Assembly: GCF_016616235.1 (NCBI RefSeq)
Contig: NZ_CP067100.1
Span: 6,817,001 to 6,881,000 of the forward strand
Length of the DNA: 64,000 nt
Direction: 5' to 3'
Source: Bradyrhizobium diazoefficiens
GTDB taxonomy: Bacteria; Pseudomonadota; Alphaproteobacteria; Rhizobiales; Xanthobacteraceae
Part shown: piece by piece, positions 59,015-63,925 of the stretch
Layout of the letters: each line of letters begins with the position of its first letter
Numbering within the stretch: the stretch's first letter is position 1
The notes under the pieces: generated by a model
What the model saw: the letters and a program-made list of their open reading frames with translations, nothing else
Told to the model about the DNA's origin: nothing
Database searches by the model: none
Program-made: the position numbers and the translations under genes

Positions 59015-60187
59015 ATGAGCGGCCAGGAAAAAGAGCCGGATAAGCGTGCGCCGAGAAGCACGTCAGGCGGGATAACTCTGTCGAGCCTGCTTGCCGAGAT
59101 CCGGGCGCGCCGGTCTGAGTTCGTCACCGCGCAGAAGATCCCAGACGACATCATACACGGCTTTAAGCGGCTTGGCGTCTATCGAGCAATGGTCGCCAAG
59201 TGTTTCGGCGGCGAGGAGCGAACGCCGGCGGCGTTTTGCCGCATGATCGAGCGCATTTCCGCGGCGGACGGCTCCGCAGGTTGGGTGGCGAGCTTCGGCG
59301 GTGCCGCTTGCTATCTCGCCGCGCTCCCCATTGAAACGCTTGGCAAGATCTATGCGAATGGACCCGACGTGGTCTACGCAGGCGGGCTTTTCCCGCTGCA
59401 GCCGGCCCGGCGCAGCACCGACGGCTTCATCGTCAACGGGGTGTAGCCGTTCGGCAGCGGCTCGCCCACAGCGGACCTGATCGGGGTCGGCATCACGGTG
59501 GAAGGCGGCGCAAGCGAGGGCCTTCCGCGTGTTGCCGTGATGCCGGCCGACAAAGTGACAATCCGCTCCAATTGGGACGTGATCGGACTGCAGGGCACCG
59601 GCAGCCACGAACTCGTCGTCAGGGATGTCGTCGTGCCCGAGGAATGGACCCTGATTCGCGGCGGCCCGGCGTCGCTCGATGCAGCGATCTACCGCTATCC
59701 GTCCGTGGCGTTCGCCGCGCAGGTGCTTGCGATCGTCGGCATCGGCATTGCTCGCTCCGCGCTGGACGATGTCATTGTCATCGCCATGGCCGGCAGCGGC
59801 CCTTGGATCACTGGCGCACCCGCAATGGCCGAGCGCGGCTACATCCAGCTGGAGATCGCCAGAGCCGAGGCCGTGCTGCGCTCCGCCCGTTCCTTCTTCT
59901 ATGAGGCCACCGAAGAGCTGTGGAACCAAGCGCTCAATGGCCCGGCAAATCCGACCACGGTGATGCTGATGCGGCTCGCTGCGACGAATGCCGCACGACG
60001 CAGCGCCGAAGTCGCCAAGATCGCCTGCGGTCTCGCCGGAGCCAGATCAGTCTACGCCACGCACAATCTAGCGCGGGCGATGTGCGACAGCTTTGTGGTA
60101 GCGCAGCACGCCTTTTTCAGCGAGGGAACGCTGCAGAGCGCGGGCCGGCTCCTGCTCGGGCTTCCCGCGCAACCAGGTTTTCCATGA
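59015..60187 (+). pseudogene. acyl-CoA-dehydrogenase-like flavoprotein interrupted by one TAG
   Basis: One continuous frame of about 390 codons with a single stop at 59444: FIVNGV-TAG-PFGSGSPTADL. Relatives have a tryptophan here (NGxWPFGSG), so TGG to TAG is the simplest explanation. N-terminal part: IPDDIIHGFKRLGVYRAMVA, SAADGSAGWVASFGGAACYL. C-terminal part: WDVIGLQGTGSHELVVRDVV, and the Acyl-CoA_dh_2-type helical domain (AVLRSARSFFYEATEELW). Such proteins are flavin-dependent monooxygenases or dehydrogenases. It is either inactivated or made by stop readthrough. Confidence 0.85.
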
Positions 60188-60369: not shown

Positions 60370-60864
60370 TCATCCAGAAGGATCATCCTGGCCCGTGAGC
60401 CGCTTGTCGTAAAAGATCACCGCATATCCGTGTCGCATCCCTTGCTTGCGTCGAACGTAGCCAGAGCTCTCATAAAGTCTTTGCGCCCCGACTTGGATCG
60501 TTGTCGTGTCGAGCACGATCGACTTGAATTGCAGCACAACGGCTCGCGCCTCCAATGCGCCGAGTATCCTTTTTCCAAGTCCCCGTCGTTGAAGCGCGGG
60601 ATCGACCCGCATACGCTTCAACTCTGCGACTTCATCATCAACAGGTCTCAGCCCACCCATGGCAACGAGACGGGAACCAATATGCGCCACTATGAAGTCA
60701 CCGCCTGATGCAATGTAGACCTCCCCGATGTTGCGTAAATCATCCGCCCACCCACCTTCCGGGCCACACACACCAACATCCTCCGATGCGGTTCTATGCA
60801 GATGCCATACGTCATCCGTGTCGGCTGACACGAAGCGACGAACGACCACTTCGTCCTGGAACAT
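60370..60864 (-). CDS. GNAT-family N-acetyltransferase
   Basis: 164 residues. The acetyl-CoA-binding motif A is AELKRMRVDPALQRRGLGKR, followed by ILGALEARAVVLQFKSIVLD, TTTIQVGAQRLYESSGYVR and AVIFYDKRL. A GGAAGG ribosome site precedes the ATG. The substrate is unknown. It is the last gene of a minus-strand cluster with a PrnB/IDO-like protein and a HemN-like radical SAM enzyme, starting 80 bp after the former, so it may modify or detoxify the same product. Confidence 0.9.
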   Translation of the reverse strand: MFQDEVVVRRFVSADTDDVWHLHRTASEDVGVCGPEGGWADDLRNIGEVYIASGGDFIVAHIGSRLVAMGGLRPVDDEVAELKRMRVDPALQRRGLGKRILGALEARAVVLQFKSIVLDTTTIQVGAQRLYESSGYVRRKQGMRHGYAVIFYDKRLTGQDDPSG

Positions 60865-60944
60865 TGACCAATCACCTTCCGAATAGCACGGAGGCCCTTA
60901 ACTGCGGCACCCTCTGCGTCTGCCAGGACAATACAACGTCCGGC

Positions 60945-62135
60945 TTACGGACGCGCCGGAGTCAACAACCGCTGAGAAAGGACAGCCTCGACAGTTTCCG
61001 ACGCCTCAATGCCGACAAGTGATCGGCCGGGCCCAACCGTGTATTTTAAAGCCGCACCACGGTGCATCCGGGTAAAACGATCCCACGCACAAACGCAAGA
61101 CGCGCGCAACTCTCCGATTTCCCCGTGAGCCTGCTCCGTCACGGACGAAATGGTTGCCGAGGCAGGAAAGTTCATTTTCCCTTCTAGCCAACCTGGCTGG
61201 AGCCAGGTGCTCTCCTTGTCTGGCGACAGCCAACGGAATACCTCGCGAATGTATTCCTGCGGGTAATATTTGGACAGCCGATATACGTCCTTATAAAATT
61301 GGCGCTTTTCGCGGAATAGCTCTTCGCCGATCAGCAGCACCGAGACTGCCACAACGCGGGCTGAGAAACGGCCGCTTGGGCCAAGTGTATTTTTGTAAGG
61401 ATTTTTTTCGTAGAACACGCGAAACTGGCCAAACAGGTCCGGCGACATATGTTGATCAAAACGCGTCAGTACACGATTTGCCGACTCAACGTGCTCTAGA
61501 CATCGCGAAAGACATTGAGCTGCATCCGCATCGGCAACATCACGCAACTCAACTAGCGCCTCAATTGCCGACTGCAATTCGGTCTCGATCAGTTGATGGC
61601 CCAAGCAAAAATCGCGCTCCTCGACCCCGGCCGCGCCAAGGCAATAGACGCGAGGGTCGCTTTGCACCGGATTGGTAAGGATCATATCTTCATAGGAGAG
61701 GACGCCAATGCTGGGCTGCCGTTCACAAGTCAAGCGCGCCAGACGACTCAATGCCACACCTAGGGTCTGTTCGGCGTCCCAGGGATGGAGGCCGGCAAAC
61801 GCGGACAGCTGATAAGCAGAATTGACGAGATACTGGACGTCTGTCTTGGCGACCTCGAAATCGGACTGCGGTAAACTGAGCAGCAGCGCATCATAGTCCA
61901 TCTCCGCCGTCATTGCGTTTATGGTACGACCAAGGGCCTTAACCGCTTCGCTCGGTCGTTCACTGCATTTGATCTCCGCAATACGGTGGGGCAGTTGATC
62001 GACGACAAAATCACTGAACAATCCAAGCGGGCGTTTTCGCTGCTTGCGATCGATCGTATCGGTCAGATGAGAAAATATGTCCCGCGAAGCCAGGAGCGGC
62101 GGTTCTGGGGCAGCAAACGAACCAGTATCGATCAT
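60945..62135 (-). CDS. PrnB/IDO-like protein (candidate heme-dependent oxygenase)
   Basis: 396 residues, all-helical in look. The segment FRVFYEKNPYKNTLGPSGRF followed by SARVVAVSVLLIGEELF resembles the GxSGxxS core of indoleamine-dioxygenase-like and PrnB proteins, which open or rearrange indole rings. HPWDAEQTLGVALSRLAR and FCLGHQLIETELQSAIEALV are other conserved-looking blocks. By eye the proximal heme-His segment (MPxxHRxFL in IDO) would align with YYPQEYIREVF, which has no His. The assignment is therefore tentative. It lies 20 bp after the radical SAM gene and 80 bp before the GNAT gene. Confidence 0.5.
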   Translation of the reverse strand: MIDTGSFAAPEPPLLASRDIFSHLTDTIDRKQRKRPLGLFSDFVVDQLPHRIAEIKCSERPSEAVKALGRTINAMTAEMDYDALLLSLPQSDFEVAKTDVQYLVNSAYQLSAFAGLHPWDAEQTLGVALSRLARLTCERQPSIGVLSYEDMILTNPVQSDPRVYCLGAAGVEERDFCLGHQLIETELQSAIEALVELRDVADADAAQCLSRCLEHVESANRVLTRFDQHMSPDLFGQFRVFYEKNPYKNTLGPSGRFSARVVAVSVLLIGEELFREKRQFYKDVYRLSKYYPQEYIREVFRWLSPDKESTWLQPGWLEGKMNFPASATISSVTEQAHGEIGELRASCVCAWDRFTRMHRGAALKYTVGPGRSLVGIEASETVEAVLSQRLLTPARP

Positions 62136-62155
62136 AGCCGAGGATACCTACGACT

Positions 62156-63925
62156 TCATTGAAAAACAGCCTTCATCTCGGCGCTTGACCCGTATCTTGC
62201 AGCCGGCGAGTAATCGTGCTTTTCGAGAGGATCGGTTCGCTTGTCCTTTATCCTGCTGTCATTGTACGCGACCTGCTCCAGCACACTGGCCGAGAAAAAC
62301 CGCAACGACACTGCGCCCGAATTGACAATGCCCGAAGCAGTTAGCGAAAGCAGGCCATCATTTGAAATGCAGATGAGTCCTGCTTCATTCAAGATTCTAA
62401 GCTCGTGAGCAAAGTATTCCTCGAGGGCTACCCCAAATTCCTGCTTGAAGCGGGAGAGCAACACGCCGCTGCTGCGCAAGGCGAAGATCACCGTTCTGCG
62501 CATGAGATCGTCTCGCGACAGGACGGCACCCTTCCACACCGGTTTCTCGCCGGCCTCAACCCTGTCCAAGTAGCGATCTAAATCGACCTCGTTGTAGAAC
62601 TGGCACTCACTCATATAACCAAATCCGCTCACCCCGAACGGGACCAGGTTATTGTCGTTCCAGGAATCGTATTTGCGGGCCTGTTGAACGGAGTGCGGCT
62701 GCGACCTCCTGGTCCAATAGAAAATCGGCCCATGGCGATAGCCGAGGCTCGTCAGGATGTGCTCCGCCATGAAATGCATGATGATGCGCTCCTTAGCCCC
62801 GGCGAATTGATATCGACCGTTGGCCAGATGGCGGGCTATGGGGTCCGTTGATTTGAACATCAATGGGAATACGTTGAACTTCTCTATTCCCATGCCCACA
62901 AGGCCGATGAGGGAGTCGTACCAGCTTCTGAGCGTTTGCTGCGGCAGCCCGTACATGAGATCAAGCGACAGATTCTCGACCCGCATGTCGTTCAGCAATT
63001 TTACGGTCTGCATCACCTCATCGACACCGTGCCCGCGGTTTAGGATGCGCAGGATACTTGGATCTAGAGTTTGAACTCCGAGAACCAGGCGATTTACGCC
63101 GCCTCCCAGCAAGCTCGATACGCGATCTGCCGCATCCACGTGCTTCCCAAGAGAGGGATGCAATTCGAAACTCACTTCGGACTTGGATAGATCAAAGTGC
63201 TGCCTCATCATGCCAAACAGCGTTTTGATTTGATCGTTCGTCAAAAGTGAAGGGGTGCCGCCTCCAATGAAAGCCGTCTCAACGGTTCTGCCGGCAAGCG
63301 CATTGTCCGACCAACTCATCTCCTTCTCGAGAGCCGCTAGATAGTGTTCGATGCGCCCGGGAGGCGGATTGATCTCCTTGCCGAAGTGGCAGAAGGTGCA
63401 ATTTTGATGACAGAAGGGAATGTGGAAATACAGATCGATTGACGACGCAATCCGATTCAACAACTTTTCGGGATTGAGGTCCCCCATCGCCTTAAGAGGC
63501 GGATATGTACCGACGAGATAGTCGTTAAACGTGTCGAGGTGCAGATTTCGTGACCTCAACATGTCAATGTTGATGTCGTACGACCGGTCGATCGCGAACT
63601 CCAGGGCTTCGGAATAGCTTGGCGCGAGCACTTTTTGGACTCCTTGAGCGTTTGCGTGCAGCCAGGGCACGATACCGGCTGAGTTCGTTCGATGACGACA
63701 ATCAGACGTCGCAGCCGAGGCGAACATTGTTCGTTTGTTGCGAAGCGGCACCCAAGAATGCTTCAAGCACGGCGCTGAAGGATTCCTCCAAAAACGATGC
63801 GCGAGCTCCCGGATGTGACGAAAGCGCAATCGCTGGGCGAACTCGGGCCGGTCCAGCGGGCTCGCGCACATCTTCTGTCCGGCCCCCCTCACCCCCGGGG
63901 AGCCATCGAAGTTCGAAACGGACAT
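62156..63925 (-). CDS. HemN-like radical SAM protein
   Basis: Up to 589 residues. The 4Fe-4S motif is DLYFHIPFCHQNCTFCHFGK (Cys172, 176, 179). ETAFIGGGTPSLLTNDQIKT, NRLVLGVQTLDPSILRILNR, LSLDLMYGLPQQTL and a HemN-type C-terminal domain follow (FGVSGFGYMSECQFYNEVDL). The family includes coproporphyrinogen oxidase, heme chaperones, anaerobilin synthase and radical SAM methylases or cyclopropanases. An extra ~150-residue N-terminal region precedes the core. The start is uncertain (63925, or 63727 at MFASAATSD). It heads a three-gene minus-strand cluster. Confidence 0.85.
   Translation of the reverse strand: MSVSNFDGSPGVRGAGQKMCASPLDRPEFAQRLRFRHIRELAHRFWRNPSAPCLKHSWVPLRNKRTMFASAATSDCRHRTNSAGIVPWLHANAQGVQKVLAPSYSEALEFAIDRSYDINIDMLRSRNLHLDTFNDYLVGTYPPLKAMGDLNPEKLLNRIASSIDLYFHIPFCHQNCTFCHFGKEINPPPGRIEHYLAALEKEMSWSDNALAGRTVETAFIGGGTPSLLTNDQIKTLFGMMRQHFDLSKSEVSFELHPSLGKHVDAADRVSSLLGGGVNRLVLGVQTLDPSILRILNRGHGVDEVMQTVKLLNDMRVENLSLDLMYGLPQQTLRSWYDSLIGLVGMGIEKFNVFPLMFKSTDPIARHLANGRYQFAGAKERIIMHFMAEHILTSLGYRHGPIFYWTRRSQPHSVQQARKYDSWNDNNLVPFGVSGFGYMSECQFYNEVDLDRYLDRVEAGEKPVWKGAVLSRDDLMRRTVIFALRSSGVLLSRFKQEFGVALEEYFAHELRILNEAGLICISNDGLLSLTASGIVNSGAVSLRFFSASVLEQVAYNDSRIKDKRTDPLEKHDYSPAARYGSSAEMKAVFQ

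What the first reader, a model, noticed from the sequence alone, without database searches (positions are those of the whole stretch)
60370..63925. Radical SAM (HemN-like) - PrnB/IDO-like - GNAT cluster: possible undescribed biosynthetic pathway
Three minus-strand genes, with 20-bp and 80-bp gaps, look like one operon. A HemN-like enzyme with an unusual N-terminal extension, a protein resembling indole-oxidising heme enzymes and an acetyltransferase would be an odd combination for primary metabolism. HemN relatives are known to do methylation and cyclopropanation in natural-product pathways, and PrnB-like proteins rearrange tryptophan derivatives. A tryptophan- or heme-derived small molecule made in the nodule is a reasonable guess, but the PrnB assignment is weak.
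Basis: partly seen in the sequence, partly recalled or inferred. Interest (0 to 1): 0.75.

Follow-up and report, generated by a model that had tools for sequence, protein, structure and literature searches.

The report
Rhizobial heme-oxygenase / radical-SAM / acetyltransferase operon
Three adjacent genes, carried as a unit by many root-nodule bacteria and in the surveyed genus found only in strains that also carry the nodulation gene nodA, appear to encode a small enzyme pathway (a tryptophan-dioxygenase-like protein, a HemN-like radical enzyme and an acetyltransferase) whose product is unknown.

Summary
The order HemN-IDO-GNAT recurs across rhizobial genera in varied surroundings. IDO and GNAT are fused in one lineage; HemN is lost or broken in several. 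In 195 genomes of the genus, all 39 carriers have nodA (39 of 108 nodA+, 0 of 87 nodA-). All three genes show purifying selection. The genome has its own hemN and TDO. Most likely: an undescribed symbiosis-linked small-molecule pathway on a tryptophan-like substrate. Heme binding, substrate and product are inferred.

The parts
62156..63631 (-). HemN-like radical SAM protein, 491 aa from GTG 63631; CX3CX2C iron-sulphur motif at residues 74/78/81 followed by His-Phe; HemN_C domain
   Evidence: Pfam Radical_SAM 2.3e-20 and HemN_C 1.3e-11 (on the longer ORF); best PDB E. coli HemN E 2.8e-41, NocN 1.4e-18; start from the Shine-Dalgarno site and relatives
   Evidence: 17 of 24 upstream regions have an in-frame stop close by; the window and two close relatives do not; annotated homologues begin at the shorter start
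63640..63645 (-). Shine-Dalgarno-like AAGGAG 8 nt before the GTG
   Evidence: sequence; similar sites in most relatives
60945..62135 (-). IDO-like protein, 396 aa; predicted IDO fold; candidate proximal heme ligand His358, distal-pocket His180, Tyr148 and carboxylate-binding Arg239
60370..60864 (-). GNAT acetyltransferase, 164 aa; fused to the IDO-like protein in R. tropici CIAT 899 and Mesorhizobium sp. M0115
   Evidence: Pfam Acetyltransf_1 1.1e-13; fusion

Best explanation
An operon for a short small-molecule pathway carried by many legume symbionts. Its core is a heme enzyme of the IDO fold that oxidises the aromatic ring of a carboxylate-bearing, tryptophan-like substrate (tryptophan, a derivative, or an indole acid), followed by a GNAT that acetylates an amine of the product. 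Where the third gene is present, a HemN-like radical SAM enzyme that binds two SAM molecules adds a one-carbon unit to an sp2 carbon of the substrate or intermediate. Supported by sequence and prediction: gene order, IDO fold, conserved active-site positions, two-SAM residues, purifying selection, co-occurrence with nodA. Inferred: heme binding, oxygenase chemistry, substrate, order of steps, product, and timing in the nodule.
Against: No biochemical evidence. Fold identity is by prediction at about 10-18% sequence identity; no Foldseek match is below E 0.001; the model is weak in parts (143-146 and 154-157 below pLDDT 50). Pfam IDO is not reached and a PF01231 search of the whole genome does not find the gene. 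H180 is Gln in one distant member, P0048. A radical SAM enzyme is oxygen-sensitive while IDO uses O2. HemN is missing or broken in several lineages. In the four annotated loci viewed the flanks differ and I saw no shared precursor or export gene. The IDO-like gene is partial or interrupted in 8 of 39 carrier genomes. GNATs are too generic to predict the substrate.
Confidence: 0.55

Rival explanations
1. A detoxifying or hormone-tuning pair: the IDO-like enzyme and GNAT inactivate a plant or microbial indole compound (for example auxin or a tryptophan-derived defence molecule) rather than build a product; HemN-like is an accessory.
For: IDO-GNAT is the stable core while HemN comes and goes; among three HemN-less Mesorhizobium loci (L023-L025) both genes are uninterrupted with dN/dS 0.22-0.32 (three pairs, dS 0.004-0.098); the carboxylate-binding Arg position is kept.
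Against: Only 39 of 108 nodA+ genomes carry it, few for a general hormone function. The auxin-degrading iad pathway reported for Bradyrhizobium starts with a Rieske enzyme (PMC12633357, passages).
Confidence: 0.2
2. A heme-centred function: the HemN-like protein modifies or opens a porphyrin (as HutW/ChuW) or inserts heme, and the IDO-like protein is a heme carrier or heme-handling protein.
For: HemN-like proteins include HutW and HemW, and this one gives matches to both below their cut-offs; an IDO-like protein would bind heme.
Against: Scores are far below cut-off for HutW (168 of 400 bits), HemW (147 of 205) and HemN (187 of 325); no feature named as a heme transporter in the four annotated loci viewed; the H180 and R239 positions suit a small carboxylate substrate.
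Confidence: 0.1
3. A spare coproporphyrinogen oxidase (hemN copy) next to two unrelated genes.
For: Database names are 'coproporphyrinogen-III oxidase family protein'; E. coli HemN is the best solved match.
Against: Below the hemN cut-off; the position of HemN Cys71 is Phe83, shared by all 18 members aligned; a HemN above cut-off lies about 34 kb away; constant gene order and the IDO-GNAT fusion argue against unrelated genes.
Confidence: 0.05

Closest known systems
Indoleamine 2,3-dioxygenase (PF01231; human IDO1, Shewanella SO4414)
   Same: predicted fold over nearly the whole length; positions of Y126, residue 167, R231 and H346 are matched
   Different: about 10-18% identity; below the Pfam cut-off; residue at position 167 is His, as in the three bacterial IDOs aligned here, not Ser; occurs in an operon with HemN-like and GNAT
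PrnB (PF08933; pyrrolnitrin biosynthesis)
   Same: a heme enzyme of the same superfamily as IDO by literature (PMC11791213, abstract and passages)
   Different: no significant profile match (hhalign E 0.03, probability 1.7%); no PF08933 hit
Class C radical SAM methylases (NosN/NocN, TbtI, C10P; CoeI of coelulatin)
   Same: HemN-like; CX3CX2C; residues contacting both SAMs largely kept; CoeI is 493 aa and methylates an anthraquinone carbon in vitro (PMC9714029, passages)
   Different: NocN matches only residues 65-243; methyl transfer untested; CoeI sequence not held and not compared, and its authors suspect the methylated product is a by-product
HemN, HemW, HutW/ChuW
   Same: Radical_SAM plus HemN_C architecture
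   Different: all below NCBIfam cut-offs; Phe instead of HemN Cys71

Membership tests
IDO (Pfam PF01231) | score above the curated cut-off of 26 bits | tested here: not met
   12.9 bits, E 0.048; 12 of 17 members of A4 give a hit at E up to 1, best E 0.0016; not found by the whole-genome search
IDO fold / heme-dependent aromatic oxygenase superfamily | IDO-type helical fold | tested here: met
IDO fold / heme-dependent aromatic oxygenase superfamily | proximal histidine ligand | tested here: met
   His358 aligns with IDO1 His346 and with the bacterial IDO histidine; present in 16 of 17 members, the 17th a fragment ending before it
IDO fold / heme-dependent aromatic oxygenase superfamily | heme bound and aromatic oxygenation catalysed | not testable with these tools
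   needs purified protein
PrnB (PF08933) | profile match to PrnB | tested here: not met
   no PF08933 hit at E up to 1; none in the whole genome in a search that found 6 of 398 genomes; hhalign E 0.03
PrnB (PF08933) | PrnB structure among best fold matches | tested here: inconclusive
   not in the 50 rows shown, which IDO fills
Coproporphyrinogen III oxidase HemN (TIGR00538) | score above 324.95 bits | tested here: not met
   187.4 bits
Coproporphyrinogen III oxidase HemN (TIGR00538) | CX3CX2CXC with fourth cysteine (motif recalled) | tested here: not met
   HemN Cys71 aligns with Phe83
Heme chaperone HemW (TIGR00539) | score above 205.4 bits | tested here: not met
   146.7 bits
HutW/ChuW (TIGR04107) | score above 400 bits | tested here: not met
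   167.6 bits
Class C radical SAM methylase | HemN-like with residues for two SAM molecules | tested here: met
   NocN Tyr34, Gly100, Thr101, Arg153, Gly157, Arg171, Asp196 matched; Tyr96 and Cys133 differ; Ser225 lies outside the alignment. HemN also binds two SAMs, so this does not discriminate
Class C radical SAM methylase | one-carbon transfer to an sp2 carbon | not testable with these tools
   needs assay
GNAT acetyltransferase (PF00583) | score above cut-off | tested here: met
   51.9 bits, cut-off 20.7

The most novel reading that the evidence does not exclude
Legume symbionts of several genera share a hitherto undescribed, horizontally moving pathway that makes a specific oxidised, N-acetylated and (where HemN is intact) C-methylated tryptophan- or indole-derived molecule acting in nodulation, with an IDO-fold oxygenase new to rhizobia and a new radical-SAM/IDO pairing.
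Probability: 0.35. Interest if true: 0.85.

Novelty: new variant of a known kind. Interest (0 to 1): 0.6.

Why it matters
The trio, or its IDO-GNAT core, is carried by many rhizobia, including plasmids of R. tropici CIAT 899 and R. gallicum, yet named records mostly call the middle protein 'hypothetical' and the first a coproporphyrinogen oxidase. If it is a pathway, it links symbiosis to an IDO-type oxygenase, a chemistry best known from immune regulation and antibiotic biosynthesis, and offers a defined three-gene deletion to test. Even if the product guess is wrong, it corrects two annotations and defines an IDO-like family that reaches from rhizobia to candidate-phylum bacteria.

Tried and rejected
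PrnB membership: rejected by profile comparison and absent PF08933 hits, an earlier PF08933 search of 21 genomes, rang nowhere, controls included, and is not used. The single middle protein against PDB found nothing meaningful; only profiles did. NifA/sigma-54-like, nod-box-like and FNR/FixK-like patterns upstream of hemN: none in the window's own lineage; FixK-like boxes and chance-level UAS matches in some relatives. Rows for short loci L031-L048 are an indexing artefact and ignored. A search for conserved upstream ORFs was too noisy to use. Genome context of the actinobacterial HemN-like relatives could not be reached: plasmids gave rhizobial copies and, in the 40 rows listed of 397 records, otherwise matches near 25-30%; 398 genomes of the phylum (E up to 1e-50) gave 4 matches, the two outside the genus at 33%. 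With profile A1, 2 of 347 genomes of the order had a match, both of this genus; most sampled genera are not rhizobia. Literature: searches found no paper describing this cluster in the held open-access library; most subscription papers are not held, and the superfamily survey (PMC8639356) is not held.

Full report
What is there. One search confirms three minus-strand ORFs with gaps of 20 and 80 bp. The window is part of a complete 7.67-Mb genome (window = 6817001-6881000), of the genus Bradyrhizobium by the names of its closest named relatives. At 63631 a GTG follows AAGGAG by 8 nt. Most relatives have a start with such a site at the same place, and 17 of 24 distinct upstream regions carry an in-frame stop within about 40 codons of it. 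Against this, the window and its two closest relatives (L051, L052) keep the long frame open. Public annotations give 1476 bp in R. gallicum and 1473 bp in Bradyrhizobium sp. 187, so about 491 aa is most likely.

Active site. In the alignment, renumbered (chain index plus 10, fixed by the S167H mutation named in the entry title), Y148, H180, R239 and H358 fall on IDO1 positions 126, 167, 231 and 346. Their roles in IDO1 (pocket, distal pocket, carboxylate binding, proximal heme ligand) are recalled. H180 aligns with a His in the three bacterial IDOs. In A4, R239 is present in 17 of 17; Y148 in 16 (His in P0047); H180 in 16 (Gln in P0048); H358 in 16, P0047 being a fragment that ends before it. 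This predicts a heme enzyme with a carboxylate-bearing substrate. In MarE an arginine holds the substrate carboxylate and His55 the indole nitrogen, a mode its authors call similar to IDO and TDO (PMC11904535, abstract and passages).

The HemN-like protein. It matches HemN (1olt, E 2.8e-41) and the radical SAM part of NocN (1.4e-18), but is below the NCBIfam cut-offs of hemN, HemW, HutW and STM4012. One search lists the best 120 of 1739 hits. After the rhizobial ones come proteins mostly of about 500 aa at 38-47% identity; those with names are Streptomyces, Actinomadura, Amycolatopsis, an Acidimicrobiales MAG and an Archangiaceae MAG. HemW-type proteins near 30% follow. All 18 members aligned share GTYPPLK and CX3CX2C followed by His-Phe. 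Of the NocN SAM-contact residues that I mapped, Y34, G100, T101, R153, G157, R171 and D196 are kept; Y96 and C133 are not. HemN Cys71 is Phe83. CoeI, a 493-aa HemN-like enzyme, methylates an anthraquinone carbon in vitro, though its authors suspect this product to be a by-product (PMC9714029, passages); the similar length is only a lead, since its sequence was not compared.

The unit. One search examined the 27 loci. In all 26 rhizobial ones the GNAT follows the IDO-like gene on the same strand. HemN matching to its C-terminal end precedes it in 18, a remnant in 4 (R. tropici group), none in 3 Mesorhizobium loci, and one locus is cut by its contig end. Of the 39 genomes, the 20 best-scoring were fetched; the 19 other than the window (L030-L048, partly the same genomes as) all hold the three genes, HemN being cut by the end of the stretch. 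The weaker-scoring genomes were not surveyed as a set; two of them that I fetched at length (L058, L059), and pUSDA76 (L063), have no HemN match. In Bradyrhizobium sp. 187 the annotated HemN and IDO-like genes overlap by 4 bp. The IDO-like protein and GNAT are fused in R. tropici CIAT 899 and Mesorhizobium sp. M0115 (P0025). The tree puts M0115 beside R. freirei, whose two genes are identical to those of CIAT 899 over the compared stretches, which suggests one fusion event. The tree also mixes Rhizobium, Mesorhizobium and Ensifer sequences, which suggests transfer between genera. Flanks differ in the four annotated loci viewed, of 19 plasmid records with a match.

Symbiosis link and selection. 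In 195 genomes of the genus, the window's included, 39 have a match to the IDO-like protein and 108 a strong NodA match (E below 1e-60, my cut on the 124 matches; the 16 weaker ones I take for other GNATs). All 39 are among the 108 (Fisher p 2.4e-12; shared ancestry not corrected for). Of the 39, 31 have an uninterrupted match over at least 376 residues and 8 are partial or interrupted. Median pairwise dN/dS (0.05 < dS < 1.2) is 0.204 for GNAT (34 sequences), 0.202 for IDO-like (40) and 0.109 for HemN-like (44) (dropped beforehand: coverage under 90%, duplicates, and two GNAT rows, L015 and L061, flagged for a stop). The genome has a HemN above cut-off at 6914829-6916127 and a TDO above cut-off at 4483309-4484115, so the trio is unlikely to serve primary heme or tryptophan metabolism.

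Mechanism. I propose IDO-type oxidation of a tryptophan-like substrate and acetylation of an amine by the GNAT, with one-carbon transfer by HemN-like in lineages that keep it. IDO-GNAT is the core: in the HemN-less loci L023-L025 both genes are uninterrupted with dN/dS 0.22-0.32 (three close pairs). An oxygen-sensitive radical enzyme beside an oxygenase would suit microaerobic nodules, but expression there is not shown. One bacteroid proteome lists an 'unknown protein' bll8309 among those that decline with nodule senescence (PMC6320959, tables). A genome of 9,105,828 bp (G187; the length I recall for USDA 110) carries the trio near 9.096 Mb, with an apparent frameshift near HemN codon 44. I could not map bll8309 to it.

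Known or new. No paper describing the cluster was found in searches of the open-access library. One source label calls a member 'DUF1864', the former PrnB name (recalled). The enzymes are new variants of known kinds; the combination and its symbiont distribution appear undescribed.

Noticed in passing
L008, L010, L015 (exact), L005, L009, L012 (one mismatch), about 190-700 bp upstream of hemN: FixK/FNR-like palindrome TTGATCYAAATCAA in Bradyrhizobium and Mesorhizobium relatives, absent in the window's lineage; 5 exact matches in 170,680 positions of ten loci, three of them here.
   Followed up: partly
L028 7035-8039: In Ca. Curtissbacteria a protein that looks by eye like tryptophanyl-tRNA synthetase lies about 1.5 kb downstream of a distant, short IDO-like ORF.
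   Followed up: no
G000:C1:6783636-6784947: A hemN-like gene broken into two pieces, about 92 kb from the trio, besides the hemN above cut-off at 6914829.
   Followed up: no
window 59015-60187 (+): Acyl-CoA dehydrogenase-like sequence split over two ORFs of 143 and 229 aa, apparently disrupted, downstream of the trio.
   Followed up: no
L049 12865-13941 (+) and 9842-11354 (-): A 358-aa FtsZ-like ORF and what looks like an AbiEi/AbiEii-type pair just beyond the window (named by eye, no family search).
   Followed up: no
L056 10743-10877: HemN of the genome that I take to be USDA 110 seems frameshifted near codon 44.
   Followed up: no
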